Part shown: one piece after another, positions 6,209 through 31,091 of the stretch
Numbering within the stretch: the first letter of the stretch is position 1
Layout of the letters: each line of letters starts with the position of its first letter
Assembly: GCF_039555335.1 (NCBI RefSeq)
Contig: NC_092644.1
Span: forward strand, 49,985,281-50,049,280
Length of the DNA: 64,000 nt
Reading direction: 5' to 3'
Source: Amphiura filiformis
Lineage: Eukaryota; Echinodermata; Ophiuroidea; Amphilepidida; Amphiuridae
Position numbers and translations under genes: made by a program
The notes under the pieces: model-generated
The model's database searches: none
The model's input: only the letters and a program-made list of their open reading frames with translations
Told to the model about the DNA's origin: nothing

Positions 6209-6256
6209 ATGATGGCGTCGCAATCTACGTCTTTGCTCAACTCAGACTCTGATAAG
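6209..6256 (+). CDS. MAN1B1: MAN1B1 coding exon 1 (start codon, cytosolic tail)
   Basis: Too short for ordinary ORF calling. Reads [16 protein letters not shown] and then meets a good donor, AAG|GTAACT. An in-frame TGA lies two codons upstream (6203-6205), so translation starts at one of the two adjacent ATGs (6209 or 6212). The exon ends in phase 0, exactly what is needed to enter exon 2 in the frame that reads WKRLSRLQ, which resembles the human WKQLSRLQ just before the membrane helix. Assignment rests on this phase match and on position; there is no strong sequence similarity in the tail itself. Confidence 0.6.
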
Positions 6257-12200: not shown

Positions 12201-15200
12201 GCGTGTACAAGGTGTGGACCAAGAGGAGAAGCTTAAGGCTGAACCACTGCTCCCTGCTGATGATGAGGAGGAGGCAGAGGATTGGGGCCAAGAAGTCGGG
12301 GCAGCTGCAGGAGCTCTTGAGGTGAGATCATGTAAACAGCATGTGATTTGCATGTGGTGTGTGTAAATGCTTTGTTGTTTTGCACTTTGACTCCCAATTT
12401 AAGCAGCAGCAAGATGTGATGGCACTAAAAAATGAAATAAATGAAACATATCATCTAGTGCCGTCGTCGACATGCCTTATGTCGACATAATGTCGACGCC
12501 GGCACGAATCCCGACATGTCGACATCAAAAAAAAAATTAAAAAAAAATTTTTTTTTTTTTTTTAATTTTCAAAAAATATTTTTGGCCAGAAAAAGTAAGT
12601 TATAGGCCCAAAATTACTTGTTATTCAAGGTTGAAACCAGAGAAATACTGCTACTAAAAATATAAAAAATGCCAATTTTTTTTTACAAAGTTGGATAAAT
12701 TTGTTTATTTTGATTACCTTTCTTTCTATTGAACAGTCAGGGACACATTGAATTAGTATGCATTGCTAGCTGTTCAATAGAAGCAAAAGTAATTAAAATA
12801 TACAAATGTATCCAACTTTGTAAAAAAAAATTGGCATTTTTTTTTTTTAGCAGTAGTTTCTCTGGTTTCAACCTGAATAACAAGTCATTTTGGGCCTATA
12901 ACTTGCTTTTCTGGCCAAAATATTTTTGAAAATTAAAAAAAAAAAAAAATTTTTTTTTTAGAATTTTTTTATGTCGACATTACACTGTCGACGTCGGTAT
13001 ACTAATTTTATCGACATGTCGACATTAAAAAACGGTGCCGACGACGGCACTAATATCATCTGCATCACAGATTGAAGTGAATGTGCAGTGAAAATAGCTG
13101 CTTGTGAATTTGATGTTGATAGTATATGTCATTTGTGTGTGCATGTGATGTTCAACTACTGCTTGGGTTGTGAACATTTTGTAGATTGTGATAATTGATG
13201 ACAAAAGTGTGCTGTGCTTGCTGTGAAAATTGGGCTATTCCAGTTGAAATCTGTGTACCCTCCGGAAGATATGACCTTAATCTGCCGCACAGGGGTGTGA
13301 ATCTCAAATGGGGTTACCTGAGTAGGTGACTCGATGACTCCATGTACCCCCTGTGTGGGAGATTAAGGTCATGTCTTCCATAGGGGGTGTAGATTTCAAC
13401 TGGAATAGCCCATTTGGTTGAATACCTTAATTTAGACATCATAATTTGTGGTGGATTAGGGGCTTATTGGGGCCTTGCACTCTAAGGAACCGACCTAAAG
13501 ATTGATTATTTTTAATTTTTAAACAAAACTAAGCCTACTCCTTTATGGGAATATTTCAAGGGCATGCAGAACTTGGTATAATTAATGGCCAGAATGCAAG
13601 AAATTTAGACACCTGATTTGGAAAGGTACAACATGTAAAAGCTGAGTGATTTGTACAATTAGTGGAGACCCCACAATGCCCTGTTTGCTCAGTTACCAAG
13701 TTATTTGCAGTAACAATAACAAATTAACAAATACAGCTTATTTGTGGCAAAAACATAAGCCAAATTCTTATTTTACTTGTAAATCTAATCAAATTTGAAC
13801 CAGTTTGCACAGCTTCAAATTAGTTGCATTCTTAGATGATGACTTCTCAAATGTAAGGCTACTGTCAATTTTTTGCTGGAGTTTCAGTGAAGCAGCTTCA
13901 AACAGGGTTGTAGCTACTAACACTGGGTGGTTAAGCCCAGTGGGTGGTTAAGCCCACCACTCACCTCTGGAGCCCACCTGTAAAGGTTAATTCATTCCTG
14001 GCACCCACCAATCAAATTTTAAGAATATGTGTATTTTACGGAATGCATCTTATCAATGCCCAGTATTGGCAACATCTTGCTAAACATATCTAGGTTCTGT
14101 AAATTGTCACCTGACACTCGGCTAGCTACAACCCTGGTCTCAAAGCAGGTTACTTTTATTGTGAACAAGTGAAGAGATTGATGAAGTCTTATAACTAGTT
14201 TAATTTCCAAGCTGACTTCCTCCCTCCCTGTCTGTAATGAAACCAGAAGTAGTTCAAAATAACATTGACGTTTGAAAGAGCATAGAAAAAATGTAATTGA
14301 CATTTAACCCCTTCCTCCCCCTCTCCCTCCATCCATAACAAAATTAGTTTAATTTCAGTTTTAATGGACATTAATTTTTAACCCTTCTACCCACCCTCCC
14401 TCCCTCCCCCTCTCTCCCTCCATCTCTAACAAAACTAGTTTAATTTCAATTTTAATGGACATTTAACCCCTTCCTCCCACCCTCCCGTCCCTCTCTTCCT
14501 CCGCCCCTTACAAAACTAATTTCGCTAGTAGGACGTCATCAATCTTTTGGTTTGTTCCCTAAATAACTCTATCATTGAAAATGGTGAATGCTATGCTAAA
14601 TTGTAATTAAATTACATCAGATATACTTAATGGATTTGTCCAGTCCTCCCTGCTGATGCCTGTATTTTATTGCATGCAGTAATGAGTAATCATTTTGGTT
14701 TTAATCTTTTATGATGTTCCATATACATTTATAATTATATATGTCATTACCACCAAATGCTGACAAATCCCAAATAACTAAAGGCCTCACAAAAAGTAAC
14801 CTTGCCATTATAAATATGCTTATAACTTGAAAACTATTAATTGTACTTGTTATTTGAAAACATCAGAAGAAAAAAAAATTGCAAGACGGTCATTATGACA
14901 ACTTGTTTGATACAATTGACAAATTAAGGATTGTGGTGTCAGTTGAAGTTTGAATATGACAATTTGTCATTTCCATTTTGCATTAAATTGTATTGTTCTG
15001 AATTCAGGGCAGATATAATTTCAGGTTTTATATGCTACAATGCTTGACTTTTATAACCATTGATCATTGTAAATGCAACTTTTAAATTCGGGGTTTTTGC
15101 TGAACCATGAAATGGTATCAGCCTATATTAGTGTATGTCCCTTACTTACCAACCATTTGGTCTAAAATGGACATATCTTTAAATGCCACGAAGGTATGAA

Positions 15201-18200
15201 CCCCCAAGTGGTGTCAAATGAAAGAGAAAGAAGTAAAGAATATGATAAAAATATTTCCTGACGTCAGAGGTCATGCAAGGGTCAAAGGGGTCAAAAAAGG
15301 TCATTTTAACCAAAAATGCTCCAATTAAGCTGAAATTTATATGCAATGATCCTTATGACATTCTAAACATGTTTAAAATATTTTTATATTCATTTAAGGT
15401 CATTAAGGGGTCATAAAGGGGTCAAAGGTCAAGTTTCCAAAAATGCTCCAATTGAGCTGATATTTAAATGCAATGATCTTTAAGACATTCTAAACATATT
15501 TAAAATATTTTAAAATTCATTTAAGGTCATTAAGGGGTCAATAAAGGGGTCAAAGGTCAAGTTTTCAAAATGGTTCAATTGAGCTGAAATTTAAATGCAA
15601 TGATCCTTATGACATTCTAAACATGTTTAAAATAATTTAATATTCATTTAAGGTCATTAAGGGGTCATAAAGAGGTCAAAGGTCAAGTTTTCAAAATGCT
15701 CCAATTGAGCTGAAATTTAAATGCAATGATCCTTAAGACATTCTAAACATGTTTAAAATAATTTTTATAAAATATTTAGTATTTAATAAAATATTCATTT
15801 AAGGTCATTAAGAGGTCATAAAGGGGTGATATATATACATGTACCACAATATACTGCCAAAGCCCCATGGTTCAGCTATGGTGCGGTAACCGCTCTAGTT
15901 CTTTAAAACACTACTTTGTTGTTGATGTTAAATGAAATTGGGTGAATGGAGCATTAAATTAGCATAAAACATCCATCATTCTATGTTAAAATATTATACA
16001 ATTAATAGTTCTGACACTATAGACACATGTATTTTATAGCTGAGTTACTTTTTATGAGATCTTTATAATAACTATAGAGGTGATGTTATCGAATTGGTTG
16101 CAGTGCGATGCCATTTTGCCATGGTTGCTGTTTGTGCTTAGCAAATCACACAAGGCACCACATAAGACTTACAGGGACAGTCTATAGATATCTGGTATTG
16201 GTCAGTTTGTAGAAATGCCCTGAAGGCCTCTTGTATTTCAAGGTGGATATCATGCTCCTGCAAAAAAAATGTATAAAAATAGTAGTTTTTCATGGGCAAG
16301 CAATGTACATCATGTAGGGTGCAGAAACATCAAAAATCAGTGAAAACGGTATGTTTGAAAGGACCTCAAACATGAAACAACAAAAAATGGAAAAATAATT
16401 ATTGTTTTACACTGTTTTAGTGTAGCAAATACAACCAAAATAATATGTTTCGGATATCATGGAACCCTGGTAAAATACTTGCTTAGGGTCCGTTTTGAAA
16501 GTTACATGCTATCCACCTCGAATACAAGTGCCCCCCGGTAGAAATGACAATATATTTTATACTGGTGGTTATGGTGAATTAATGTGTAGTATAGATGAGA
16601 TGACATTCATGTAATACCAAACAGGTGGTAGGTGGTATCATTGTATGCAGCCTGTTTTGTTGAGGACTACATGCTTTTAAAATTTGTGCCAAATCGATAA
16701 AGGGCAATATTGGCTATTGAAAAATGAGGGATCGTATTTGATATAATCAAATTAAATAAGTTATTTGTCACTAATATTGGTTTGGAGATATAGCCAATAA
16801 TTGTATTCAACTTCTTTCGTATTTTAGTGTTCGTAAGCAACACTGAAATAACCATATCTGGAGAAGTGTATCAATTGTGATTGAGTTTTTATTAAAACAA
16901 AGCTTTGGAAATGGTACATACATACTGTACAATGCAATTGGAAATTGAATTTTGATTTTTCTAGAGAAGTGACTTATTTTATTTGATCGCATCACATATG
17001 CTGTTCCATCAAGCGTATCGATAGACCAGTCCCTTGCCTTTATGTATAAACCGTGCAGAAAGCTGAATCTTGGACAGCTATCCAGTTACCCCGGTAGCAA
17101 TTGCTTTATACCATGTGGGAGTAACTGGATTTTTGACCAAGATTATGCTCTCTGCACAAACCTTGCTGTCACCTCATCTATAACCAGTTAGCTTTTTCTT
17201 CTCTCTGCTTTTTTTTCTTTCAAAATATTTGAAAGAGACCAGAAAATGCATCCATGCGAAAATTTGAAAAGTTAAAAAAACAGTAAGAAAAAACTTCAAA
17301 ACACACGAAAATGGAGCAGATAAATATTCACAACTGCAAATATGCTGTTTTTAATTTATACATTGCATGTCAGGCCAAATTTATGGGGAATCATGGATTT
17401 ACGCCACATTTCTGGACTTGCAATTTAAATTAGTTATGTGAAGAAAAAAATGATTTAATGGGAGGTAAATTCTGGTACAAGTGTGCTTTATTTTGCTTTA
17501 AATCTGAATTTGTAAGCATTGTTTAGTTTACCAGTGTTTAGGTGATTCCAACTTTCTTTTTTCTTCTTTGTTTTGTTTCTTTTTGTCTCTATAGGTCCTG
17601 CATGGTGCATTGTATAATAATAGTAGCCTTTCTCTCCTCTGGGAACCATGTCATGCTTGTGTGAATGGGTTATGTCTCCTGCATCTCAGCTTCTTCATGG
17701 TCATTCTCTGCTGGCTGTCAAATGGGGGCGCTTTTATTATTCATTTTTGTGCTTTATATTATAAACCATTATAATTTGCACCTACTCTTAATCACAAGCA
17801 AGCAATTTATGTTTTTCACTATAATTTAAATTATTAGTATTTCATGAAGTAAATTGCAAATATGATATGTGAAAGTTAGTCTCTTGGTGTGGGGATCTAA
17901 TAAAGCTCACAATTGTCAAATATTTCATTAGTAAACTATAAGCAATGTGAAAATATTCAATTCTTTGTAGAAATATCTAATAGCATAAAATCATGCTACT
18001 TGCATACCTAATACTAATGTCATGAAAATGGAAGTTTTAAAAAGGTAAAGTCTAACCTAATTTGGGTCAGATGCATTGCCATAATAATAATAATATTACT
18101 ACTAAGCTTCTTTTAATTCATCATCAATTCATCTTTCTACTTATTGATCATATTCTTTTTGGTTTGCTGAGATCACTGATTGTGCTTTGAATTCATTAAA

Positions 18201-21200
18201 CGACACACTGCACTCACGAGTATGATTGATGCTGCACAAATGGTTTCCATGGGGATATGGTGGTTTTGAGCTCACATTTACTCTCTGCACTAAAAATCAA
18301 AATTATTTTTAGAAAATAATATAAAATAAGTTTTGTCTGAAGCCATAGAGGATCTTTTCTACAGGTAAACTACACAGAATTTACAAACAAAAGACAATTT
18401 ATGGTTTCTTAAGTCTTTCTGTTGCTGCTATTTAGTGATATCGGAAATATGTGATATTTTTCAAATTAAATTAATCATTTTGCGATACATTTAAAACTGC
18501 TGACTAACTTTGCATTCCCTTGATCTACATGTATGACCTGAGCTGGAAGTGAGTATTTCTGATATCATGTATTATACAGTCACAAAATTATCGTTAAGCT
18601 TAGCTTCTTAAAAAGTAAACTATTAATAAATATCAAAAAATTACTACAAGCAAAATATGCAAATTATTACTGATTCTTACTAACCCATTGTGACATGTGA
18701 CCTTTGACAGGATAACCAAAATAATGACGACCAGGCCGGAGTCGTAGTACATGAAGAAGAAAATGTGATAGCACCAAATGTAGTGCATGATGACATTGAA
18801 GCACCAAACCCAGCCCCTAATCAAGAACAACCAGCTTATGGTAAGAGAACAGTCAATGGGATATGGAAACAAATATGTGACACAATCAAGGGAACTGAGT
18901 CGCATGGTGCTAATATTGATTTTGAGATATTGGCAAAGAAAATATTAAAATTCTTTTGTTTTATATTCTTTTCAGGCATGTTACTCATTCCCCTTGATCA
19001 TGTCACATAATACATTATGCAACAAACACACACATGTAGTACACGATAACATTAGAGCACCAAACCCAGCAATACCAGTGCTGTCATTGGAGATTAACAA
19101 ATTACTAGACACAGTGCTTAGAACATGTCAAAATGATTTTTCTTAGAACATGTCAAAATGATTTAGCATGTGTTATGCTGCATGTTGGAAGACTGGCTCC
19201 TCAAAGAATAAATTGGCAGTTCCATACCACTTCATAAATAATACTTCTAGCATTTTAGAATTATTCACTTGGCCTGTAAGAGGTATAAGCAACATTGCTA
19301 CATGTAATGTTCAGTTGGCTGTATTTGGCATAAACAATAAAGGCAAGCACATTATGAGCATTAATATACTTGTGATATTTTTTATCTTGTTTTGACACAG
19401 GTCCACAGAATGAGAAGCAGAGAGCAGTTGTAGATGCCTTCCAACATGCATGGAAAGCTTACCGTCTGCATGCATGGGGTCATGATGAACTCAAACCTAT
19501 CAGTAAATCATACAGTGAATGGTTTACATTAGGGCTGACATTGATAGATTCACTAGATACAATCTATATCATGGGATTAGATAAAGGTAAGCTTACTGTG
19601 TACATGCATGGAGTCAGGATAAACTCAAACCTATCAGTAGAACCTATTGTGAATGGTTTACATTAGGCCCCCAGGGCTTTAGCTCACAGTGAATGGTTGA
19701 CATAACTTTGGGCTGACATCGATGATTCACTGATTGCAGTGTATATCATAGGTTTATACCTTGATGAGGTAGTAATGTGAGTGCACATATCATGGACCGC
19801 AGCTTCAAATCACTAGCGTTCACTCAACGCATGTACCCACACACACGCTTAAAGACGCCACATAGTTGCAATGCAACAACTGCCTCAACGAGTTGATGTC
19901 ACTGCCTCTTTCGAGACAAAAAATGGTATAGACCGAGGTATGCTATTAATTGACTCTGTGACTTAATATTATTTTGCAGCATGTTTTGGGAGTCATGGGA
20001 TAGTGTTGAAAGTATTAACCCAATTTGGTTACCAGACTTGGTATTTTTTTTGGTATGTTAAGACTAGTGATTGGTATGGGGATTTTTAATGCGGTTCAGT
20101 CCTTTCAAATCTAGTGAAGTAATCCCTGTGTCTTTATTTCAGAATTTCAAGAAGCCAGAGATTGGGTGGCTAATGAAATGGATGTGAAACCAAGCAAAGA
20201 TGTTAATCTATTTGAGACCACCATCCGTGTCTTAGGAGGACTCCTTAGTACATACCATCTATCAGGAGATCCTATATTCTTAGATAAAGCTGTAAGTACT
20301 GTCTCTGTCTGTCTGTGAGTGTCTGTCTGATGTTAATCTATTTGAGACCACCATCCGTGTCTTGGGAGGACTCCTTAGTACATACCATCTATCAGGAGAT
20401 TCTATATTCTTAGATAAAGCTGTAAGTACTGTCTCTGTCTGTCTGTGAGTGTCTGTCTGATGTTAATCTATTTGAGACCACCATCCGTGTCTTAGGAGGA
20501 CTCCTTAGTACATACCATCTATCAGGAGATCCTATATTCTTAGATAAAGCTGTAAGTACTGTCTCTGTCTGTCTGTGAGTGTCTGTCTGATGTTAATCTA
20601 TTTGAGACCACCATCCGTGTCTTGGGAGGACTCCTTAGTACATACCATCTATCAGGAGATTCTATATTCTTAGATAAAGCTGTAAGTACTATCTCTCTCT
20701 GTGTGTCTGTGAGTGTCTGTCTGATGTTAATCTATTTGAGACCACCATCCGTGTCTTAGGAGGACTCCTTAGTACATACCATCTATCAGGAGATCCTATA
20801 TTCTTAGATAAAGCTGTAAGTACTGTCTCTGTCTGTCTGTCTGTCTGTGAGTCTCTGTCTGATGTTAATCTATTTGAGACCACCATCCGTGTCTTAGGAG
20901 GACTCCTTAGTACATACCATCTATCAGGAGATCCTATATTCTTAGATAAAGCTGTAAGTACTGTCTCTGTCTGTCTGTCTGTCTGTGAGTCTCTGTCTGA
21001 TGTTAATCTATTTGAGACCACCATCCGTGTCTTAGGAGGACTCCTTAGTACATACCATCTATCAGGAGATCCTATATTCTTAGATAAAGCTGTAAGTACT
21101 GTCTCTGTCTGTCTGTCTGTCTGTGAGTCTCTGTCTGATGTTAATCTATTTGAGACCACCATCCGTGTCTTAGGAGGACTCCTTAGTACATACCATCTAT

Positions 21201-24200
21201 CAGGAGATCCTATATTCTTAGATAAAGCTGTAAGTACTGTCTCTCTCTGTGTGTCTGTGAGTGTCTGTCTGATGTTAATCTATTTGAGACCACCAGCCGT
21301 GTCTTAGGAGGACTCCTTTAGTACATACCATCTATCAGGAGATCCTATATTCTTAGATAAAGCTGTAAGTACTGTCTCTCTCTGTGTGTCTGTGAGTGTC
21401 TGTCTGATGTTAATCTATTTGAGACCACCATCCGTGTCTTAGGAGGACTCCTTAGTACATACCATCTATCAGGAGATCCTATATTCTTAGAAAAAGCTGT
21501 AAGTACTATCTCTCTCTCTGTGTGTCTGTGAGTGTCTGTTCGATGTTAATATATTTGAGACCACCATCCGTGTCTTAGGAGGACTCCTTAGTACATACCA
21601 TCTATCAGGAGATCCTATATTCTTAGATAAATCTGTAAGTACTGTCTCTGTCTGTGTGTCTGTGAGTCTCTGTCTGATGTTAATCTATTTGAGACCACCA
21701 TCCGTGTCTTAGGAGGACTCCTTAGTACATACCATCTATCAGGAGATCCTATATTCTTAGATAAAGCTGTAAGTACTGTCTCTGTCTGTCTGTCTGTCTG
21801 TGAGTCTCTGTCTGATGATAATCTATTTGAGACCACCATCCGTGTCTTAGGAGGACTCCTTAGTACATACCATCTATCAGGAGATCCTATATTCTTAGAT
21901 AAAGCTGTAAGTACTATCTCTCTCTGTGTGTCTGTGAGTGTCTGTTCGATGTTAATCTATTTGAGACCACCATCCGTGTCTTAGGAGGACTCCTTAGTAC
22001 ATACCATCTATCAGGAGATCCTATATTCTTAGATAAATCTGTAAGTACTGTCTCTGTGTCTGTGAGTCTCTGTCTGATGTTAATCTATTTGAGACCACCA
22101 TCCGTGTCTTAGGAGGACTCCTTAGTACATACCATCTATCAGGAGATCCTATATTCTTAGATAAAGCTGTAAGTACTATCTCTCTCTGTGTGTCTGTGAG
22201 TCTCTGTCTGATGTTAATCTATTTGAGACCACCATCCGTGTCTTAGGAGGACTCTTTAGTACATACCATCTATCAGGAGATCCTATATTCTTAGATAAAG
22301 CTGTAAGTACTGTCTCTGTCTGTCTGTCTGTGAGTCGCTGTCTGATGTTAATCTATTTGAGACCACCATCCGTGTCTTAGGAGGACTCCTTAGTACATAC
22401 CATATATCAGGAGATCCTATATTCTTAGATAAAGCTGTAAGTACTATCTCTCTCTGTGTGTCTGTGAGTGTCTGTTCGATGTTAATCTATTTGAGACCAC
22501 CATCCGTGTCTTAGGAGGACTCCTTAGTACATACCATCTATCAGGAGATCCTATATTCTTAGATAAATCTGTAAGTACTGTCTCTGTCTGTGTGTCGGTG
22601 AGTCTCTGTCTGATGTTAATCTATATGAGACCACCATCCGTGTCTTAGGAGGACTCCTTAGTACATACCATCTATCAGGAGATCCTATATTCTTAGATAA
22701 AGCTGTAAGTACTATCTCTCTCTGTTTAATACCACCACATGTGTTATAAGACTCTTACATGCCATTTATTAGGAGATTTTATATCCCTAAAAAAGCTGTA
22801 CTGTCTTCATGTCTTATTCTTTTGCTCTCACTGTCTATTTCTCTTTTGTCTGTCTGTGAGTCTGTCTGATGCTTGAGTTTTTCCTTTGTTGCGTGGCTAA
22901 TTTCAAAGCTCTCTGTCTATATGTCTATCTCTGTTTCTCTCTGTTTGAATTTTTCGAAATATGTGATGTGCCGTACCAAAAGGAGACACTTTTGGACAGG
23001 TTATCAATTTTGAGGTTTTTACATACAGATATTTTGCTCCACAACGCCGTTTTCCCCAATGAAATCGGACATTCCTAAGCGAAGATATTGAATTTGTAAG
23101 TTATGGTATTATAAAATTGGAAATTGAGATATCGGCCTTTTAGAAATATTATTGACAATGTTGAGAGTAGGAATTACCTTGAAAATTGTCTCAAAAAATG
23201 TAAGTTATATTCCAGTATGAAACTATCAAACAATATTTTAAACATTAATAACATCACAAATTAGCAACAAACCCATATTTTGGAAAAAAATCACCCGGAC
23301 AGATTTTTGGCTATTTCTCCATTTACGATCCTGCCCAAAAGTTTCTCCTTTTGACATGACATGTCACATATTTAGAATTTTACTGAGCATTTCTGTTTCT
23401 CTTTTATTTTATAGAAAATCTTGGGAGACAGCCTATTACCTTGTTTTAACACTGGCTCCAAAGTACCTTATTCTGATGTAAACTTGAAAACTGGTAAAGC
23501 TCATCCACCGCGCTGGGGACCGGATAGCTCCGTATCGGAAGTCAGCACAATCCAAGTGGAATTCAGAGACTTATCGTTTACAACAAACGATCCAAAATAC
23601 AAAAATGCAGCAGATGCTGTAATGAGGCATTTACATACACTGCCCAAGGAGAATGGACTAGTGCCAATATTTATCAATGCCAATTCTGGGCAGTTTAGAA
23701 AACATTCTACTATTACTATGGGAGCTAGGGGGGATAGTTATTATGAATATTTGTTAAAACAATGGCTTCAAACTGGGAAGACAGAAAAACAGTGAGTATA
23801 CGACACATAATTTTGTATAATATTTAATTAAGGTACAGAATTAGAGCAAATCTGAAGCAAAATGTGCTCAAAATATCTCCAAGCAAAAAGGGTATTGTAG
23901 CCTATCATATATTTGTCAATCACAACACATAGTGGCGTAGAGTGATTTTTCCAAATTTTCCACTTCACATAGTGATGTAAAGGTTTAGAGCTAGCTATAT
24001 CCTGTAATAGGTATGGCTTTTTAACATTAAAGATACAATTAAATAGCTTGAACCTTAAACTTCAATTTCAATTGGAATCTGGCCACTGAGAGATGAACAG
24101 TGGAGGAGTATTGACTTCGTTGTTAGTAACATATCCTCAGAAACATATTTTGTTTTTCATGTCTGCCATTATGTGTTGAGACTGACGATGCACTTGAGCT

Positions 24201-27200
24201 GGTCTGTTTCATAAGTGATATGTTGTAGTCTACAGTCAGCAAATGGTTATGGGTTGACATGGATATATTAATGTGATATGATTCATATAGGATTATATAA
24301 AAGTAATTTTGGATGAGGAGTTTGCACAGTGGACAGGCACAATTAATGCCTTTGACAGATGCTCTCATAATTACATAAAAGTAGATCCATTTTACAAACA
24401 AGCCCATAGCAACCCAAATTTGTACTCATTGTGATAGATTTTCTTGTTGCCTTTCAGGTTTTTAGACGACTATTTAGCTGCAGTGAATGGGATGCAGGAT
24501 AAGCTAATACGCAAATCTGGACCTAATCAACTCACATTTGTAGGGGAATTATTAAGTGGCAATAAATTCTCACCAAAAATGGTAGGTATTAGTAGTATAC
24601 GAAGGACGTTGAGCTTGTACAATGTTTAGATAACTGAGACAAACTGGTATACAGGACATACATGCCAAATAAATTGAGAGACTATGGGTTGAATTAGGGT
24701 ACTGTAAAGTCAGGATCAGTGTTTAAAAGACCAAAATAGTGTGGTGATCTGATCAATATGAAATAGTGCCTTATAAACTTGTATAATGTAATTTAATGTG
24801 ATGTGGTGAGATGAGATGTATTATAATGTAATGTACATACTCTCAAGTTGATGAAAAACAAATTGGATTTGTGTTGTTTTGAACAAGCAACCAAATTATG
24901 CATTTGTTAATAAACTATCGGAGCAATCTTATTAAGTCAAATCTGAAATTTTACTCAAAGTAATTAGTTGAATGTGGTAACCATACACAACCATAGGAAT
25001 GTGAGCAGTTGATGCTGTGATAACCATTTACATTCACAGAATGAGACCATTGAAAAATGTTATCATACTTTAAGGCACACACCTGCTGTAACTTAAAAAA
25101 AGGTGTAAACCTTGACTTGCATTATTTAATTGTTGAGCAGTTCTGAAAATATGTGTAGGCTGTGGATTATGATTATAAATTCTACCATACTCATTTTCTT
25201 TCTAGTTGAGCACATCAACCACCATTTGAACAGTTACAGGTATATAGTCCAAAGAGTCATTAGTCCGAATACCCAATAAGGGTTGTTATAAAGCCTAATC
25301 CTTACCCCAAAACTTGCCCTAATCTATGACCTAAGCCCTGATCCTAACACTAAACCTCATGCTAACACTAACCTTAATCATAAACCTAACCCTAACTCTA
25401 TACCTAACATTTACCTAACCGTATCCTTATAGACCTTTTTCTCAAACGTCACCAATCAATCGATATTGGGGTCCAGCATTGAGTCATCAGCACCCAAAGC
25501 ATAAATACCGCTACCCGGCCAAGACGATCAACTTTTGTGCTGGCGCTGGGGCCTCATGCTGGATTGCCAGCATGCAGTATGCATTCATCACGGTGTAAAA
25601 AGTAAACAAAATGTGAAACAAAACAAAGATTGAATTTCAAAAAGTATCGCGGGTTTTCCGTATATATTTTGTATTTTATAGTGTCAAAACAAGCTGAAAT
25701 ATAGATACCAGTGTACAGTTCCCGTTTAAACAATTATTTTATGGAAGCTATCATGAAAGATGACAAACAGAGGAGAAAATAGACAGTATTCAGTGTTTTC
25801 ACACCGTGGGCATGTTAGACTATGCCATAGTCGAATTTTATTAAAAGTATGTTATTATTAGTCATGATGAACCCATTTCGTTGAACTCAAAATTATACTG
25901 ATGTTTATTAAAATTAAATTATTCAATAGTAAAATGGTCATAAAGAGTTTAAAATATCAGATAATTAGTGACAATAAAAGTAACTGAATGCAACATTATC
26001 TTATTATGGCTCACTTTAATACTGAACAATTCTGCTTTTGGAATCTACCAGTTTATTGATAGCGAACCCCGAAAATCCGACTTTGGACTTTGAAATTTAA
26101 GCAGAACTTTACCCCGGGACTTTGCTCTCTAAAAACACACAGTCAAGCATACTTGTTTATAAGTCCATTAACCACAAGTACTAAGCATGGTATAGTACAA
26201 GACGCGCTAGATGTTTGATGAGAGATTAACTTTCGAGTCAACACAAAAGCGCCGCAAATACCACAGATAGTTGTGTAGGGTGTAGTTAATGGTAATGGCG
26301 CGGGCCCGGAAGATTTAAACAATAGTGAGATATGGGCGACCAATCACAAGGCAGATCCATTTAAAGATGCATTACATCATGGTTAATTTTAGTTAGGCCA
26401 GAAATTGGCCTAACTCTCCATAGAGTCCCATGTTAAAAATCTTAACCGCAAGGCAAAATCAGTAGTCCACTTGGGAAGCTAACAAGCAGAGGGAGTGCGG
26501 TGACTGAAAAGATCAGATACAGATGTGAAAATCTATCAGTTGCACACAAATCAATATAAATCAGAGTTTTATGCTTAAATGTAATGGCCAGAGTATGCAA
26601 AATAGGCAAGTGGACTAGGCCAAAAAAAAATTGTTTGTTTGTCCATAAAGGCTTATGAAATAGTTGGGTCGGTAGGTCGGATTTTTTTTTTTTTTACAGA
26701 TATTGCACTTGAAACTGACAACTGACAAGACTGGTAAATAAGTCCAAACACACAGCACTTCACTGGTTTAACTCTTGAGATGGTTCTGCATAGGCCTGCC
26801 ATTTTCGGGTAATTTTGTACCCGGGTACCCGGCGCATTTTTCGGGCGGGTACCCGAAATTGCAACAACAAAAAAAAGAAAGTTTTTAATTTTTTCGTTTT
26901 TGTAGTGTCCAACGCTAGGATCATTCATGGTTGATCTAAAAAAAAAAAATCATTTTTTTTAGGTCAACCATGAATGATCTCTATTTTTTTTTTTTTTTTG
27001 AAAAAATTCCAAAAAAAAAAAAAAAAATTCCAAAAAAAAAACACGGTCGGGACCAGGGTACACGGTCGGTCGGACGAGGACAAACAAACAATTTTTTTGG
27101 GGGGCCCTACGGAGAAGTCTATGGGCACGTGGGAAATGCATGTGTTGTTTGTTTACATCTAAAACCCCAATATCGATTAGGTGACGTCATCAGAAAAAGG

Positions 27201-30200
27201 TCTATACTCACCCTAACCTTTACATTAAACCTAACCTAAATGCCCTATGCCCTAACTTCAACCCTTTTAGACTAATGACCCTTTGGACTAATGAGCTGTT
27301 CCCATCTAAACTATAGCTTACTATGAGAGTGTTATATTAACTGTTTGTGTGTTTGTATTTCAGGATCACCTTGTATGTTTCCTACCAGGTGCTTTAGCCT
27401 TAGGTTATATGAATGGCTTAGACAGTTCCCATTTAGACTTGGCGAGGGAGCTAATGCATACATGCTATCAAATGTATGCACAGATGCCAACATTCCTTAG
27501 TCCAGAGATATCGCATTTTAACATGCTACCAGGTGGCAATGAGGATATCATAGTCAAGGTGAGTCCTTAGTCCAGAGATATCACATTTTAATATGTTGCT
27601 GGGTGGCAATAAAGATATCATAGTCAAGATGAGTCCTTAGTCCAGAGATATCACATTTTAAAACGCTGCTGGGTGGCAATGAGGATATCATAGTCAAGGT
27701 GAGTCCTTAGTCCAGAGACACATTTTAACATGCTGCCGGGTGGTCCAGAGTCATTAGTCCAGAGATATCACATTTTAACATGCTACCAGGTGGCAATGAG
27801 GATATCATAGTCAAGGTGAGTCCTTAGTCCAGAGATATCACATTTTAACATGCTGCTGGGTGGCAATGAGGATATCATAGTCAAGGTGAGTCCTTAGTCC
27901 TGAGACATCACATTTTAACATGCTGCCGGGTGGTCCAGAGTCCTTAGTCCAGAGATATCACATTTTAACATGTTGCTGGGTGGCAATGAGGATATCATAG
28001 TCAAGGTGAGTCCTTAGTCCAGAGATATCACATTTTAACATGCTGCCGGGTGGTCCAGAGTCCTTAGTCCAGAGATATCACATTTTAACATGCTGCCAGG
28101 TGGCAATGAGGATATCATAGTCAAGGTGAGTCCTTAGTCCAGAGATATCACATTTTAACATGCTACCAGGTGGCAATGAGGATATCATAGTCAAGGTGAG
28201 TCCTTAGTCCAGAGATATCGCATTTTAACATGCTGCTGGGTGGCAATGAGGATATCATAGTCAAGGTGAGTCCTTAGTCAAGAGGTAGAATATTTTAACA
28301 TGCTACCAGGCGGCAATGAGGTTATCATAGTCAAGGTGAGTCCTTAGTCCAGAGATATCACATTTTAACATGCTACCAGGTGGCAATGAGGATATCATAG
28401 TCAAGGTGAGTCCTTAGTCAAGAGGTAGAACATTTTAACATGCTACCAGGCGGCAATGAGGTTATCATAGTCAAGGTGAGGCCTTAGTCCAGAGATATCA
28501 CATTTTAACTTGCTACCAGGTGGTAATGAGGATATCATAGTCAAGGTGAGTCCTTAGTCAAGAGGTAGAACATTTTAACATGCTACCAGGCGGCAATGAG
28601 GTTATCATAGTCAAGGTGAGTCCTTAGTCCAGAGATATCACATTTTAACATGCTACCAGGTGGTAATGAGGATATCATAGTCAAGGTGAGTCCTTAGTCA
28701 AGAGGTAGAACATTTTAACATGCTACCAGGCGGCAATGAGGTTATCATAGTCAAGGTGAGTCCTTAGTCCAGAGATATCACATTTTAACTTGCTACCAGG
28801 TGGTAATGAGGATATCATAGTCAAGGTGAGTCCTTAGTCAAGAGGTAGAACATTTTAACATGCTACCAGGCGGCAATGAGGTTATCATAGTCAAGGTGAG
28901 TCCTTAGTCCAGAGATATCACATTTTAACTTGCTACCAGGTGGTAATGAGGATATCATAGTCAAGGTGAGTCCTTAGTCAAGAGGTAGAACATTTTAACA
29001 TGCTACCAGGCGGCAATGAGGTTATCATAGTCAAGGTGAGTCCTTAGTCCAGAGATATCACATTTTAACATGCTACCAGGTGGTAATGAGGATATCATAG
29101 TCAAGGTGAGTCCTTAGTCCAGAGATATCACATTTTAACATGCTGCCAGGCGGTAATGAGGATATCATAGTCAAGGTGAGTCCTTAGTCCAGAGATATCA
29201 CATTGTAACATGCTGCTGGGTGGCAATGAGAATATCATAGTCAAGGTGAGTCCTTAGTCCAGAGATACTACATTTTAACATGCTGCTGGGTGGCAATGAG
29301 GATATCATAGTCAAGGTGAGTCTTAGTCCAGACTCCAGAGGTAGTACATTTTAACATGCTGTTGGTAGGCAATGAGGATATCACAGTCAATGTGAGTCCT
29401 GGACTCCCGAGTCTATAGAGAGAGCACATTTTAACATATGTGGTATATACCAAGAGGGTGAATGAGATGGGAGGGATGTTTGTTATATCATCTCTAAATA
29501 CAATAACATCATCAGAGAAGTTAAGCAATTCCTCCTAACAGAGTGTTTATCCATCTCATACAATACTCTTGTTTATCCTTATATTAACTACTGCATGATC
29601 ATCTGGGCTGATAACAACAATACACACCGTGACTCCGTTCTACTTTTACAAAACAAAAGATGGTGAGAACCAGTTCTCTGTGGCTAGCACATGCATCAAT
29701 TTCACCATTGCATCCTTCCTAATGATTTATTACTGGACAAGAATTATTGAAACTCAGATAAAGATTTCAATAATTATAGTGTGTGTAATGCTGACATCCT
29801 CTGTATTTGCCATACTAACACCAAGCTGGCCTTTAATACCATCAGAGTTCAAGGTTCAATTCTGTGGAACAAGTTGCCACTTTCTTTTAAAAATGCACCT
29901 CCGATCAATATTTTCAAGCAGTTATTGAGAAATATGATTCTTGTACCGTCTAAATCTTTGCATTTAAAGTATTAAAATGCAAGGTGATTGGGTTATTTGA
30001 GGGTAGAAATTTGTTTTAACATATTTAATGGACTTATTGTTGGCACCCTTAATAAATGGCACCTGCATGTACCTTAAAATAGTGCTTAATTCCTTATTAT
30101 TATGCGAGGGCACTACATCTCATGCTTTGGATAACATAAAACTGAACTAAACTGAAGTAAACTGTGAAGAAACAAATGCATGGGTAAATAGGTAAGAATT

Positions 30201-31091
30201 AATTAAATATCCACATAGCATACACATCACATATGCAGGTGTGGTCCTCATGAGAGCTTGCCATCGAGTTCGGTTAGCAGCAGTGCATCTGTCATGTTCA
30301 TGCCAGTGAATTTCATAATAATTATCATCTAGCCAGCTTTCTGTTGTTCTTCCTCTCTTCCACCTGCCTTCCACCTGCCTTCCACAATTGATTTCTCAAG
30401 ACATGAGCATCTGGTAACATGTCCAAAATAGGACAGCTTGTGTGAAAATATTTCAGCACATTCACCAGCTAAATGGGGAAACATATTAAATATGAATTAA
30501 ATATATACACTTGTTTAGGAATGATTTCAAAACCCAACCGTCACTTGTGTCCTGTCAGAACCAGCAATTGAGCCTGGTTTCTGTTGGTTAGTTGACTGAC
30601 TGTTGGATTTGATGACATCCCTTACTTACTTAGCTGTGTACTTTATGACAATCATATGATTTTGTATTGAGCATGTTGAGTAAGACACTGTCCCATCAAT
30701 TTTATATCACTAATTGTTTTTAATTTTTCCCTCATTACAGCCGGCGGATGCTCATAATCTTCTTCGTCCAGAAACTGTCGAGAGCCTTTTCTATTTACAC
30801 CGTATAACTGGTGACAAAGTGTACAGAGACTGGGGTTGGCAGATATTCCAAGCCTTTGAAAAACACACCAAAATAGCCACGGGAGGCTATTCATCAATCA
30901 GCAACGTAAAGAGTGTTGAGAAACCATCATTCAGGGACAAGATGGAGAGCTTCTTCCTCGGCGAGACTCTGAAATATTTCTTTTTATTATTCAGTGATGA
31001 TCCTAATTTACTTCCATTAAACAAATATGTGTTCAACACAGAAGCTCACCCGTTGCCTATAAGGACTAACATCCCCAGTCCCCAGTGGTGA
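6209..31091 (+). CDS. MAN1B1: ER mannosyl-oligosaccharide 1,2-alpha-mannosidase, ten-exon gene
   Basis: GH47 enzyme of the ER/early secretory lumen that removes a terminal alpha-1,2-mannose from Man9GlcNAc2, acting in N-glycan trimming and glycoprotein quality control. Coding exons: 6209-6256, 10626-10840, 12016-12321, 18711-18840, 19401-19586, 20143-20291, 23415-23791, 24458-24581, 27364-27558, 30741-31091. They sum to 2081 nt; adding one base for the frame break in exon 2 gives 694 codons. Layout: short cytosolic tail, one membrane helix (about residues 28-46, type II), a charged variable stem (about 60-235), then the catalytic (alpha/alpha)7 domain. Residues matching the human catalytic set, from recalled family knowledge, are E320 in FETTIR, D452 in [14 protein letters not shown] and E588 in RPETVES. 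T677 in NTEAHP matches the calcium ligand, and C517 and C546 match the human disulfide. Exon 6 and exon 9 are each followed by arrays of their own 3' ends. The exon-2 frame break leaves open whether this allele is intact. Confidence 0.95.
7627..7725. mobile_element. Solo end of the ACAACCTTGGCG MITE family
   Basis: ACAACCTTGGCGAAAAAGGT, ACACCTGAGTGTTAATTGGC and CCCCGCTCCCCTATTGCAAT match the left 90 bp of the element at 10035-10313. No right end is present. Confidence 0.75.
7796..7852. repeat. 17-bp minisatellite, three copies
   Basis: GTAAACGGGAGCGGTTA repeats three times, the last with GTGG for GCGG. Directly upstream is a small palindromic GGTCGACGGTCGAC. Confidence 0.85.
9052..9110 (+). 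repeat. tRNA-like Pol III promoter (SINE head)
   Basis: TGGCTCGGCGG at 9052-9062 resembles an A box with one deviation. GGTTCGAATCC at 9095-9105 is a perfect B box, 32 nt downstream, the normal tRNA spacing. No clean acceptor-stem pairing was seen, so a SINE head or tRNA relic is more likely than a tRNA gene. Confidence 0.55.
9288..9405. repeat. Interspersed repeat, inverted copy of 1035-1150
   Basis: Carries GGGCATTTCGTGATCCACAG, TTGAGATTTTTATATCACTG and CCTCTGGCTACATAATG, the reverse complement of the copy near the window start. Confidence 0.8.
10035..10313. mobile_element. Inverted-repeat MITE (ACAACCTTGGCGG ends)
   Basis: Left end ACAACCTTGGCGG then GGTTGCCACACCTG; right end CAGGTGTGGCAAC then CCGCCAAGGTTGT. 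279 bp, no coding. It lies about 310 bp upstream of MAN1B1 exon 2. Confidence 0.8.
10626..10840 (+). CDS. MAN1B1: MAN1B1 coding exon 2 (membrane anchor), with apparent 1-base frame break
   Basis: Acceptor TTGCAG ends at 10625; donor AAG|GTACAT begins at 10841. The first 30 bases read [10 protein letters not shown] in one frame, like the human juxtamembrane WKQLSRLQR, but that frame stops at 10668-10670. The membrane helix [16 protein letters not shown] is in another frame, starting at ATC 10658, and runs on to an open end in phase 0 with exon 3. One extra base between about 10653 and 10658 would join both parts and restore agreement with human. Downstream of the helix is a charged segment ([19 protein letters not shown]). 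The break may be an assembly or base-call error, a real null allele, or an effect of unusual splicing. Confidence 0.8.
11435..11840. mobile_element. Two facing copies of a tRNA-derived SINE
   Basis: GGTTTTTTTGCTATCGGAAG...AAGTCACCTGGCACCCC...GGATTCGAACC runs one way (11480-11560). GGTTTGAATCCCGGGG...TGCCAAGTGACTTCTTTGTT...TCTGATAGCAAAAACCATGG runs the other (11738-11820). The GGTTTGAATCC word is a B box. Same family as the copies at 37505-38255. Lies in MAN1B1 intron 2. Confidence 0.7.
12016..12321 (+). CDS. MAN1B1: MAN1B1 coding exon 3 (luminal stem)
   Basis: Acceptor CCAACAG ends at 12015 and donor GAG|GTGAGA begins at 12322; 306 nt, 102 codons, phase 0 at both ends. Starts [16 protein letters not shown], comparable to the human stem segment QRGPPHLQIRPP. 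The rest is low-complexity and acidic ([27 protein letters not shown]) and may form a helical or coiled stalk between membrane and catalytic domain. This is the least conserved part of the family. Confidence 0.85.
12456..13052. mobile_element. hAT-like palindromic MITE (TAGTGCCG ends)
   Basis: Perfect terminal inverted repeats TAGTGCCGTCGTCG. Both sides carry the 8-bp duplication ATATCATC (12448-12455 and 13053-13060). Almost all of the 597 bp is self-complementary (for example TTCAACCTGAATAACAAG against CTTGTTATTCAAGGTTGAA), with several GTCGAC words near the ends and poly-A/T runs. No transposase. Confidence 0.9.
13232..13411. mobile_element. Hairpin MITE (GGGCTATTCCAGTTGAAATC ends)
   Basis: Arms of about 75 bp: GGGCTATTCCAGTTGAAATC and GAAGATATGACCTTAATCT on the left, AGATTAAGGTCATGTCTTC and GATTTCAACTGGAATAGCCC on the right. 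ATT on both sides could be a 3-bp duplication. A second copy lies at about 38660-39320. Confidence 0.85.
14300..14520. repeat. C/T-rich tandem repeat
   Basis: A unit of roughly 100-120 bp (TTTAATGGACATTTAACCCC, CCTCCCTCCCC, AACAAAACTAGTTTAATTTC) occurs about two and a half times. Confidence 0.7.
15300..15830. repeat. Tandem repeat of about 127 bp rich in AGGTCA words
   Basis: AAGGTCATTAAGGGGTCAT recurs near 15398, 15524, 15651 and 15802, joined by AATGCTCCAATTGAGCTG and CATTCTAAACATGTTTAAAA. Three units contain a direct repeat of the hormone-receptor half-site with one-base spacing: 15419-15431, 15547-15559 and 15673-15685, the last being a perfect AGGTCAAAGGTCA. Confidence 0.85.
16222..16533. 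mobile_element. Inverted-repeat element (CTTGTATT ends)
   Basis: CTTGTATTTCAAGGTGGATA on the left and TATCCACCTCGAATACAAG on the right face each other about 310 bp apart. No coding capacity. Confidence 0.65.
17046..17162. mobile_element. Short hairpin MITE
   Basis: GTGCAGAAAGCTGAATCTTG and ATCCAGTTACCCC on the left face GGGAGTAACTGGAT and CAAGATTATGCTCTCTGCAC on the right. Confidence 0.65.
18711..18840 (+). CDS. MAN1B1: MAN1B1 coding exon 4 (distal stem)
   Basis: Acceptor TTTGACAG ends at 18710; donor ATG|GTAAGA begins at 18841. Enters in phase 0 and leaves with one base of a glycine codon that exon 5 completes (G|GT). Sequence is acidic and proline-rich with a near-repeat ([18 protein letters not shown]), typical of the variable stem. 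A degenerate copy of its coding text appears further on at about 19036-19072 (ACACGATAACATTAGAGCACC...CCCAGC); it has no splice sites. Confidence 0.85.
18876..19008 (+). mobile_element. MITE with TGTGACATGATCAAGGG ends, short copy
   Basis: TGTGACACAATCAAGGGAAC on the left and TTCCCCTTGATCATGTCACA on the right. The interior GCTAATATTGATTTTGAGAT and TTGGCAAAGAAA is shared with the copy at 31557-31811. It starts 36 bp into MAN1B1 intron 4. Confidence 0.85.
19401..19586 (+). CDS. MAN1B1: MAN1B1 coding exon 5 (start of catalytic domain)
   Basis: Acceptor GACACAG ends at 19400; donor AAAG|GTAAGC begins at 19587. Encodes [20 protein letters not shown] and [20 protein letters not shown], closely matching human [20 protein letters not shown] and the LGLTLIDALDTMWIL helix at the start of the GH47 barrel. 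Ends with one base of a glutamate codon completed by exon 6. Confidence 0.97.
20143..20291 (+). CDS. MAN1B1: MAN1B1 coding exon 6 (catalytic Glu), founder of tandem array
   Basis: Acceptor TTATTTCAG ends at 20142; donor GCT|GTAAGT begins at 20292. Encodes [15 protein letters not shown], then [20 protein letters not shown]; the glutamate of FETTIR corresponds to human E330, the proposed catalytic acid. The last 93 nt (20199-20291) plus about 37-45 nt of intron form the unit repeated in the array that follows. Only this first copy has the upstream half of the exon and an acceptor. Confidence 0.97.
20199..22803 (+). repeat. Tandem array of the exon-6 3' end plus its 5' splice site
   Basis: Units begin at GATGTTAATC at 20199, 20329, 20459, 20589, 20723, 20861, 20999, 21137, 21271, 21406, 21542, 21676, 21814, 21948, 22076, 22210, 22344, 22478 and 22611, with spacings of 128-138 bp. 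Each carries the last 93 nt of MAN1B1 exon 6, a GTAAGT donor, and a short (GTCT/CTGT)n tract that causes most length differences. Copies are nearly identical, including the catalytic-glutamate codon; a few have GCT changed to TCT before the donor. The first four units form a 260-bp dimer (CTTAGG/GATCCT versus CTTGGG/GATTCT). A strongly decayed copy follows at about 22725-22803. Reading on from the first donor meets TGA within the CTGT tract, so the extra copies cannot be read as coding sequence. The reverse-strand ORFs here are by-products of 138-bp spacing. Confidence 0.95.
23415..23791 (+). CDS. MAN1B1: MAN1B1 coding exon 7 (catalytic Asp)
   Basis: Acceptor TTTTATAG ends at 23414; donor CA|GTGAGT begins at 23792. 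Phase 0 in, two bases of a Gln codon out. Encodes [46 protein letters not shown] and [17 protein letters not shown]. All match human GH47 blocks; the aspartate in [10 protein letters not shown] corresponds to human D463. Confidence 0.98.
24458..24581 (+). CDS. MAN1B1: MAN1B1 coding exon 8
   Basis: Acceptor CTTTCAG ends at 24457; donor ATG|GTAGGT begins at 24582. Completes the split glutamine codon and encodes [19 protein letters not shown] and [19 protein letters not shown], matching human LLEDYVEAIEGV and LTFVGELAHGRFSAKM. Leaves in phase 0. Confidence 0.97.
25428..27206. mobile_element. Inner inverted-repeat element, TATAGACCTTTTTCT ends
   Basis: Left end TATAGACCTTTTTCTCAAAC then CACCAATCAATCGATATTGG; right end is the reverse complement (CCAATATCGATTAGGTGACG, AGAAAAAGGTCTATA). 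1779 bp. No transposase recognised. Its insertion site lies in the telomere-like interior of the outer element. It contains a third element at 26622-27099. Confidence 0.75.
26622..27099. mobile_element. Innermost MITE, TTGTTTGTTTGTCC ends
   Basis: AATTGTTTGTTTGTCC at the left and GGACAAACAAACAATT at the right. Interior shared, in opposite orientation, with 56675-57004 (GGGTCGGTAGGTCGGA, GATATTGCACTTGAAACTGA, CACGGTCGGGACCAG). A hairpin GATCATTCATGGTTGATCT/AGGTCAACCATGAATGATC sits at about 26920-26980. Confidence 0.75.
27364..27558 (+). CDS. MAN1B1: MAN1B1 coding exon 9 (disulfide region), founder of tandem array
   Basis: Acceptor TATTTCAG ends at 27363; donor AAG|GTGAGT begins at 27559; 195 nt, 65 codons, phase 0 at both ends. 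Encodes [31 protein letters not shown] and [12 protein letters not shown]. The two cysteines match the conserved disulfide pair of human ERManI. The last 64 nt plus GTGAGT form the 70-bp unit amplified downstream. Confidence 0.97.
27495..29450 (+). repeat. 70-bp tandem array of the exon-9 3' end plus its 5' splice site
   Basis: The first unit is 27495-27564: the last 64 nt of MAN1B1 exon 9 plus exactly the donor hexamer GTGAGT. It is followed by about 27 further copies to about 29450, nearly all at 70-bp spacing and with AAG|GTGAGT intact. Some units are shortened to a GGTGGTCCAGAG form (27719-28080). From 28271 to about 29040 there is a higher-order 140-bp dimer: type B units (GTCAAGAGGTAGAAC, GAGGTTATC) begin at 28271, 28411, 28551, 28691, 28831 and 28971, alternating with type A (GTCCAGAGATATCAC, GAGGATATC). 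The last two units are decayed. Reading past the first donor gives V-S-P-stop at once, so later copies are non-coding. Confidence 0.95.
29550..29975 (+). pseudogene. LINE reverse-transcriptase C-terminal remnant
   Basis: In shifting frames reads [20 protein letters not shown], then [18 protein letters not shown] and [13 protein letters not shown]. This resembles the tail of CR1/Rex-type LINE ORF2 (SYLSYGNIIW..., F.GPKLWNSLP..IK...S...FK..LK). Several stops and frame changes show it is dead. Lies in MAN1B1 intron 9 directly after the 70-bp array. Confidence 0.7.
30230..30440 (-). pseudogene. Second LINE ORF2 tail remnant, opposite strand
   Basis: Reading the minus strand gives [20 protein letters not shown], then, after a frame change, [10 protein letters not shown] and [15 protein letters not shown]. 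This is the FGH(V/I).R....EK...G..GKR.RGR....W.DD...........DR..WR.L pattern at the end of many LINE reverse transcriptases. Its family differs from the plus-strand remnant 250 bp upstream. Confidence 0.7.
30741..31091 (+). CDS. MAN1B1: MAN1B1 coding exon 10 (C-terminal catalytic region, stop)
   Basis: Acceptor CTCATTACAG ends at 30740; stop TGA at 31089-31091. Encodes [20 protein letters not shown], the block holding the proposed catalytic base (E588 here, human E599). It continues with [28 protein letters not shown] and [10 protein letters not shown], whose threonine binds calcium in the family, and a short C-terminal tail IPSPQW not shared with human. No polyadenylation site could be assigned with confidence. 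Confidence 0.98.

What the first reader, a model, noticed from the sequence alone, without database searches (positions are those of the whole stretch)
27495..29450. Second, independent exon-donor array in the same gene, with 140-bp higher-order units
Seen directly: exon 9 shows the same kind of event, with its last 64 nt plus exactly GTGAGT repeated about 28 times at 70 bp. Six regular 140-bp A/B dimers inside show staged expansion. Two unrelated exons of one gene undergoing the same donor-spanning amplification is unlikely by chance. Inference: a mechanism tied to the exon 3' edge (for example R-loops, stalled splicing or replication-transcription conflict) or tolerance of donor arrays that tune splicing.
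Basis: partly seen in the sequence, partly recalled or inferred. Interest (0 to 1): 0.88.

Follow-up and report, generated by a model that had tools for sequence, protein, structure and literature searches.

The report
Repeated splice-donor array ("mirage") in mannosidase gene
In what looks like an echinoderm's gene for a protein-quality-control enzyme, the end of one exon together with its splice signal has been copied head to tail about 28 times; other exons of the gene show the same kind of event, which resembles the 'mirage' repeats known from amphioxus.

Summary
Exon 9 of a MAN1B1-like (ER alpha-1,2-mannosidase, GH47) gene is followed by a 70-bp tandem array (27494-29437). Each unit is the last 65 nt of the exon plus GTGAG. 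There are 28 unit starts, 24 of them full length, and six 140-bp dimers. Exon 6 carries the sister array. I also found a decayed case at exon 5 and a candidate remnant at exon 4. Exon-derived copies thus follow 3, perhaps 4, of 9 donors and precede 0 of 9 acceptors. Only the first donor of each array keeps the reading frame; each later array donor tested would add a stop. The copies are intronic relics carrying decoy donors. This kind is known: amphioxus 'mirages' are tandem duplications of exon-intron boundaries. The closest proteins here are from sea stars (77-78% identity), so this is a new, long member outside cephalochordates. Three donor hits exceed random placement (post hoc p about 0.0002 to 0.001), but one chosen window cannot establish a donor-specific mechanism, and strand composition does not support a shared R-loop cause. 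The best account is neutral duplication, expansion and homogenisation, tolerated because the exon-proximal donor is used.

The parts
27364..27558 (+). Exon 9 of the MAN1B1-like gene (195 nt, phase 0 to 0); its last 65 nt (27494-27558) are unit 1 of the array
   Evidence: tblastn to human (recalled query) and to sea-star proteins P0001/P0002 at 80-82%; acceptor TTTCAG and donor AAG|GTGAGT
27559..27563 (+). Authentic donor, GTGAG inside unit 1 (the T of GTGAGT is also the first base of unit 2); of the 25 donor-equivalents of the array the only one that keeps the frame
27494..29437 (+). Array 9: 28 unit starts of a 70-bp exon-end+donor unit, then a degenerate partial copy
28271..29110 (+). Six 140-bp B/A dimers (higher-order repeat)
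   Evidence: unit alignment and distance matrix
20143..20291 (+). Exon 6; its last 93 nt (20199-20291) are unit 1 of array 6
20199..22853 (+). Array 6: 19 units of 128-138 bp (93 nt exon + GTAAGT + a variable intron piece), followed by a degenerate copy from 22721
   Evidence: 3' limit read by eye
19401..19586 (+). Exon 5, donor AAG|GTAAGC at 19587
19586..19790 (+). Degenerate donor-spanning duplicate of exon 5 (85% over 82 nt, then 78% over 72 nt), offset 134 bp; donor-like GAG|GTAGTA at 19769
   Evidence: blastn, self-scan, alignment and U1 pairing; score 49 against a control maximum of 19 (400 intron/intergenic pieces)
19028..19071 (+). Candidate fourth remnant: 44-nt match to exon 4 (18772-18814) about 190 bp downstream of its donor; tandem origin not proven
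   Evidence: 85% over 40 nt; score 29; 0 of 400 control pieces reach it, maximum 20
3080..31091 (+). MAN1B1-like gene, ten-exon model (3080-3187, 10626-10840, 12016-12321, 18711-18840, 19401-19586, 20143-20291, 23415-23791, 24458-24581, 27364-27558, 30741-31091)
   Evidence: Pfam GH47 E 1.1e-169; PDB 1fmi E 6.5e-200. Edges of exons 2-4 rest on weaker homology plus splice consensus

Best explanation
The feature is a 'mirage'-type minisatellite. A founding tandem duplication started inside exon 9 and ended 5-6 nt into intron 9, so each full copy carries exon end plus donor (anatomy: shown). The array then grew by unequal exchange or replication slippage, including a late phase with 140-bp dimers as the copied unit. 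Inner copies are more alike than edge copies (shown; the process is inferred). The copies after the first lie in intron 9 and are not coding (shown from stop codons; for array 6 also from the substitution pattern). The gene would still work because exon definition and co-transcriptional commitment favour the first donor, which closes a normal 195-nt exon, while mis-spliced products carry an early stop and would be removed by nonsense-mediated decay (inferred). Similar events happened independently at exons 5 and 6, and perhaps at exon 4. No function needs to be assumed.
For: Unit anatomy and register. Only donor 27559 keeps the frame: 24 of 24 other donor-equivalents in array 9 give a stop after 68 codons of the extended exon 9, and 18 of 18 downstream GTAAGT donors in array 6 a stop after 57 codons of the extended exon 6. 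In array 6 copies, 8 of 9 distinct substitutions are nonsynonymous against about 75% expected for random change (17 of 18 copies scored, one with an indel skipped), and 7 of 18 copies are exact. Edge units (E02, E26-E28) are diverged and inner dimers near-identical, matching the boundary exclusion reported for amphioxus BflGb6 (passage). The same class is documented in amphioxus Adh3, globins, TnC and PGBD5; [quoted passage not shown]
Against: No RNA, reads, second haplotype or related genome was available, so splicing, polymorphism and the exact copy number are untested. Three clear donor hits and no acceptor hit in one gene are more than random placement predicts (p 0.0002 to 0.001, post hoc), and exon-derived copies lie beyond 4 of 9 donors but 0 of 9 acceptors, which leaves room for a donor-linked bias. 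Classic work on duplicated donors (recalled, not retrieved here; one search found no such paper) often favours the intron-proximal copy, the opposite of what this gene needs. The neutral-copy test was informative only for array 6; in array 9, 8 of 25 distinct changes were synonymous (23 of 27 copies scored; no expected value computed). The founder breakpoints cannot be read, so microhomology is not shown.
Confidence: 0.72

Rival explanations
1. A mutational process tied to exon 3' edges (stalled splicing, transcription-replication conflict, R-loops, or microhomology between exon and donor) makes donor-spanning duplications arise more often than others in this lineage.
For: 3 of 4 self-scan tandem clusters inside the gene span a donor and none an acceptor; 3 of 5 if a low-complexity TRF array in intron 3 is counted. 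Exon-derived copies follow 4 of 9 donors and precede 0 of 9 acceptors. In exons 5 and 9 the unit ends only 3-10 nt into the intron.
Against: Very few events in one chosen window. No common strand asymmetry: GC skew +0.124 (exon 5), -0.039 (exon 6), +0.153 (exon 9). Amphioxus mirages occur at both 5' and 3' boundaries. Breakpoints before the donor would damage the protein, so selection alone pushes surviving breakpoints past it (inference).
Confidence: 0.15
2. The array has been kept because it works: about 22 strong extra U1-binding sites in intron 9 tune splicing at exon 9 or protect the transcript from premature cleavage and polyadenylation (telescripting), or route part of the output to nonsense-mediated decay.
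For: Of 1,704 GT dinucleotides in 3.0-31.1 kb, 24 have a predicted U1 duplex of -10 kcal/mol or better and 23 of these lie in array 9, the real donor included. GTAAGT is invariant in 19 of 19 units of array 6. U1 telescripting is an established process (abstract openings seen in the listing).
Against: Homogenised arrays keep all their sequence alike, and the donor columns in array 9 are not exceptional (rank 14 of 70). 3 of 28 units lost the donor and one has AT for GT. The donors of array 6 are only moderate U1 matches (-6.8). The exon 5 case has decayed. No expression data.
Confidence: 0.08
3. Assembly artefact or a non-functional gene copy.
For: Long arrays are often misassembled; exon 2 shows an apparent 1-nt frame break in this sequence.
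Against: Units differ in a structured way (two unit classes, dimers, decayed edges), which a simple assembly stutter would not produce. The catalytic-domain exons 5-10 are open throughout and 77-78% identical to sea-star proteins.
Confidence: 0.03
4. The copies are alternative coding segments, or intermediates of intron gain that add sequence to the protein.
For: Four consecutive units of array 6 lie in an open 209-codon frame; mirage repeats were proposed as a route to new introns (passage).
Against: Entry from the real exon 6 or 9 meets a stop just after its donor; the two sea-star proteins shown align across these junctions without extra residues; array 6 copies show no coding constraint.
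Confidence: 0.02

Closest known systems
[quoted passage not shown] PMC3087553 and PMC3902484, passages read
   Same: Minisatellite-like head-to-tail units that cross an exon-intron boundary, with exon piece plus splice site; diverged edges and homogenised interior; BflGb9 duplicates a 3' exon boundary as here; unit sizes overlap (10-72 bp in Adh3, 150-160 bp in BflGb6)
   Different: Different phylum by inference (closest proteins are sea stars, 77-78%; Branchiostoma 67-71%); far more units than the 6 and 3 reported for the two BflGb6 haplotypes (Adh3 copy number not seen); three, perhaps four, donors of one gene; clear 140-bp dimers; splicing and polymorphism not tested here
IFI6/6-16 minisatellite with multiple splice donor sites (Turri et al. 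1995; only the reference and one citing sentence seen; paper not held)
   Same: An array in a gene that offers many splice donors
   Different: By its title several donors are provided in an interferon-induced transcript; here downstream donors would truncate the protein. Its unit size is recalled to be much smaller
Internal tandem repeats at exon-intron boundaries in human segmental duplications (PMC2812944, passages)
   Same: Variable tandem repeats at exon-intron boundaries change splicing options
   Different: Those repeats are kept in or spliced from transcripts and linked to new introns in recent paralogues; here the gene model needs no new intron
Intron gain by tandem genomic duplication (AGGT model; PMC3443670, passages)
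   Same: Tandem duplication near splice signals; AAG|GT repeated
   Different: That model duplicates an exonic segment with AGGT to create a new intron; here the unit crosses an existing donor and no new intron results

Membership tests
Mirage (amphioxus-type boundary minisatellite) | Tandem repeat units span an exon-intron boundary | tested here: met
   unit = 65 nt exon 9 + GTGAG; also exons 5 and 6
Mirage (amphioxus-type boundary minisatellite) | Minisatellite-like unit (reported 10-72 bp in Adh3, 150-160 bp in BflGb6) in several copies | tested here: met
   70 bp, 28 unit starts; 128-138 bp, 19 units
Mirage (amphioxus-type boundary minisatellite) | Concerted evolution inside the cluster, boundary units excluded | tested here: met
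   Distance matrix; degenerate 3' copies. Pattern only; one haplotype
Mirage (amphioxus-type boundary minisatellite) | Regular mRNA splicing despite duplicated splice sites | not testable with these tools
   No RNA data; only the first donor keeps the frame
Mirage (amphioxus-type boundary minisatellite) | Length polymorphism or somatic instability | not testable with these tools
   No second haplotype or reads
Mirage (amphioxus-type boundary minisatellite) | Found in cephalochordates (taxon of the cases called mirages in the passages I saw) | tested here: not met
   Best protein matches Patiria miniata and Asterias (77-78%), Branchiostoma 67-71%. I treat taxon as distribution, not as definition
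Minisatellite providing multiple splice donors (IFI6) | Several array donors used in mature transcripts | not testable with these tools
   Downstream donors predicted to give stops; no RNA
Intron gain by tandem genomic duplication | Duplicated exonic AGGT segment becomes a new intron | tested here: not met
   Unit crosses an existing donor; the model keeps one intron between exons 9 and 10

The most novel reading that the evidence does not exclude
Donor-spanning mirages are a recurrent product of a donor-linked duplication process in echinoderms or more widely in deuterostomes, and the long ones act as intronic U1-binding arrays that shape splice choice or transcript completion at their exon.
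Probability: 0.1. Interest if true: 0.8.

Novelty: new member of a known kind. Interest (0 to 1): 0.47.

Why it matters
A gene with about 22 nearly identical strong donors after the real one is a natural test of how a spliceosome picks one 5' splice site among equals: exon definition predicts the first, simple intron-proximity the last. It also places boundary minisatellites outside amphioxus, and three or four events in one gene, on the donor side only, make the question of a donor-linked mutational bias directly countable in sequenced echinoderm genomes.

Tried and rejected
R-loop-type strand asymmetry as a shared cause: GC skew differs in sign between the arrays.

Selection for or against decoy donors: donor columns of array 9 rank 14 of 70 circular windows for low variation, so no signal; array 6 donors are invariant but the exon part is nearly invariant too.

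Coding or alternative-exon reading: a stop just after the first donor, no extra residues at these junctions in the two sea-star proteins shown.

Copies of other exons: exons 1-3, 7, 8 and 10 gave only their own match by blastn and nothing beyond control scores in the 500 bp on either side. Exon 4 first looked like chance matches of 33-46 nt; on checking, a 44-nt match in intron 4 beats 400 of 400 control pieces, so I now list it as a candidate remnant. It lies below the length cut of my self-scan and is not counted in the placement test.

Founder breakpoints and microhomology: not decidable. Arrays 6 and 9 end in degenerate partial copies. At exon 5 the AAGCTTAC shared by exon and junction is what any duplication would leave unless the old intron already had it.

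Placement test: the self-scan used low-complexity masking and missed a C-rich 91-bp x 2.1 TRF array in intron 3 (14309-14493); I added it. Unit sizes were set by hand from the scan and TRF, and only this gene's nine donors were at risk.

Whole-genome and related-species counts: not possible (no genome held; the genome collection is prokaryotic). Metagenome scans were capped at 0, and I did not scan viral contigs as they could not bear on an animal gene. Literature searches aimed at brittle stars and echinoderms listed no such case, in a library that lacks most subscription papers. Of 427 papers only 12 were listed. A search for work on competing donors gave one paper, not opened.

The 78-bp satellite at 40570-45502 was checked for protein families on a 133-residue piece; the matches are below the cut-offs, so it is not an exon array on this evidence.

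Full report
What the sequence is. The window is eukaryotic by its gene content (no genome held; 37.4% GC). A gene on the + strand from 3080 to 31091 encodes a GH47 enzyme of the MAN1B1 / ER alpha-1,2-mannosidase I type: Pfam PF01532 at E 1.1e-169, and human ERManI 1fmi at E 6.5e-200 over the 452-residue joined translation of exons 5-10. Its best protein relatives are sea stars (Patiria miniata 77%, Asterias 78%), then crinoids, hemichordates and urchins (72-74%), with Branchiostoma at 67-71% (120 of 7,949 hits listed, and only the 7,981 candidates sharing most words were scored). I infer an echinoderm, probably in Asterozoa but outside those two genera; the species is not identified. Ten exons can be placed. 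Exon 1 rests on clear homology to the sea-star N-terminus, exons 2-4 on weaker homology plus splice consensus, and exons 5-10 on strong homology.

The observation. The exon 9 array is as described. Exon 9 ends at 27558. From 27494 on, a 70-bp unit repeats: 65 nt of exon plus GTGAG, which one base of register turns into 64 nt plus GTGAGT. There are 28 unit starts. In the alignment 24 of 28 are full length, 3 of 28 are shortened to 47-50 bp and lack the donor, and the last is diverged. Six B/A dimers between 28271 and 29110 are clear: 5 of 6 B units are identical, and among the 24 full units those two apart are more alike (mean 3.2 differences) than neighbours (6.2). Edge units (E02, E26-E28) are among the most diverged.

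Exon 6 carries the companion array: 19 units of 128-138 bp with 93 nt of exon, GTAAGT and a variable CT/GT-rich intron piece, followed by a decayed copy. Exon 5 carries a third, decayed event: two pieces 3' of its donor match exon 5 at 85% over 82 nt and 78% over 72 nt, at an offset of 134 bp for the first. Only part of the exon is recognisable there, so its tandem origin is not proven. The other exons (1-3, 7, 8, 10) show no copies in the window by blastn.

Donor side against acceptor side. I scored each exon against the 500 bp beyond its donor and the 500 bp before its acceptor, with 200 control pieces per exon. Exons 4, 5, 6 and 9 exceed all controls on the donor side (4 of 9 donors). No exon does so on the acceptor side (0 of 9 acceptors; exon 1 upstream and exon 10 downstream are not splice edges and were also negative). 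With these numbers the difference is suggestive only.

Is it more than chance? As sequence, certainly. As a coincidence, a self-comparison of the whole window finds 11 local tandem clusters, 4 of them inside the gene; 3 of those 4 cross a donor and none crosses an acceptor. The scan masks low complexity and missed a C-rich TRF array in intron 3 (14309-14493). Random placement of the same unit sizes gives at least 3 donor hits with probability 0.00019 (4 in the gene) and 0.00064 (11 in the window), or 0.00039 (5) and 0.0012 (12) with that array added and one unit size revised. The test was made after the event on a window that had been chosen for it, so it motivates a genome count and does not replace one.

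What it does. If the first donor is used, exon 9 is 195 nt and in frame. Each of the 24 other donor-equivalents leaves a stop after 68 codons of the extended exon; in array 6 each of 18 downstream GTAAGT donors leaves a stop after 57 codons. In array 6 the copied exon pieces differ from the true exon by 9 distinct changes, 8 of them nonsynonymous, about as expected without constraint (17 of 18 copies scored). In array 9, 25 distinct changes included 8 synonymous (23 of 27 copies scored, no expectation computed), which is not decisive. So the copies are intron, and the array is a row of decoys. Those of array 9 are strong: of 1,704 GTs in 3.0-31.1 kb, 24 pair with U1 at -10 kcal/mol or better, and 23 of these are in array 9 (22 decoys plus the real donor). 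Those of array 6 are moderate (-6.8). Why the cell would use the first is inferred: exon definition and early commitment favour the short exon, and errors would be cleared by nonsense-mediated decay.

How it arose. I infer a founding tandem duplication, then expansion and homogenisation, with a late dimer phase. The founder breakpoints cannot be read, because the old intron starts are hidden by copies, so microhomology is possible but not shown. A duplication that starts in an exon can survive only if it ends past the donor, because then the first donor still closes the original exon. This selection filter (inference) explains part of the donor pattern without a special mechanism. A shared R-loop cause is not supported: GC skew is +0.124, -0.039 and +0.153 for exons 5, 6 and 9.

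What is known. In passages I read, amphioxus globin genes carry minisatellite-like duplications of intron-exon boundaries called mirages, a term from the Adh3 gene, with both 5' and 3' boundaries affected, different copy number between haplotypes, boundary units excluded from homogenisation, and no interference with regular splicing in the cases tested (PMC3087553). PGBD5 and TnC are further cases (PMC3902484). A minisatellite with multiple splice donors is known from an interferon-induced transcript (reference and one citing sentence seen; paper not held; that it is IFI6/6-16 is from recall and the citing papers' subject). The window therefore shows a new member of a known kind. What is new is the lineage, the length, the dimer structure and three or four donors of one gene. 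I found no echinoderm report in two searches of an incomplete library.

Limits. No reads, RNA, second haplotype or related genome were available. Copy number may be off, and function cannot be judged directly.

Noticed in passing
19586-19790: Third, decayed donor-spanning duplication, of exon 5, in the same gene.
   Followed up: yes
19028-19071: 44-nt degenerate copy of part of exon 4 inside intron 4; candidate fourth remnant of the same kind.
   Followed up: partly
10626-10840: Exon 2 as placed shows an apparent 1-nt frame break between the conserved WKRLSRLQ stretch and the transmembrane stretch; sequencing error, wrong exon edge or real lesion not resolved.
   Followed up: partly
40570-45502: Large 78-bp satellite with higher orders downstream of the gene, C-rich over G on the + strand (GC skew -0.44); some units read open in one frame, but a 133-residue piece gave only Pfam matches below cut-off.
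   Followed up: partly
50744-51331: Open frame with weak similarity to thrombospondin N-terminal-like domains (PDB NEL/NELL2 and thrombospondin-1, E 0.003-0.017; no Pfam match above cut-off); probably an exon of the next gene.
   Followed up: partly
20678-21304: Four consecutive exon copies of array 6 share an open frame of 209 codons, helped by three 138-bp units (a multiple of 3); reading in from the real exon 6 meets a stop first.
   Followed up: yes
29550-29972: Sequence just downstream of array 9 reads like a decayed non-LTR retrotransposon end (motif recalled; the 68-residue piece tested gave no Pfam match above cut-off).
   Followed up: partly
427-896 and 15239-15827: Two further short tandem clusters (about 151-155 and 127 bp units), the second inside intron 3 and not touching an exon edge.
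   Followed up: no
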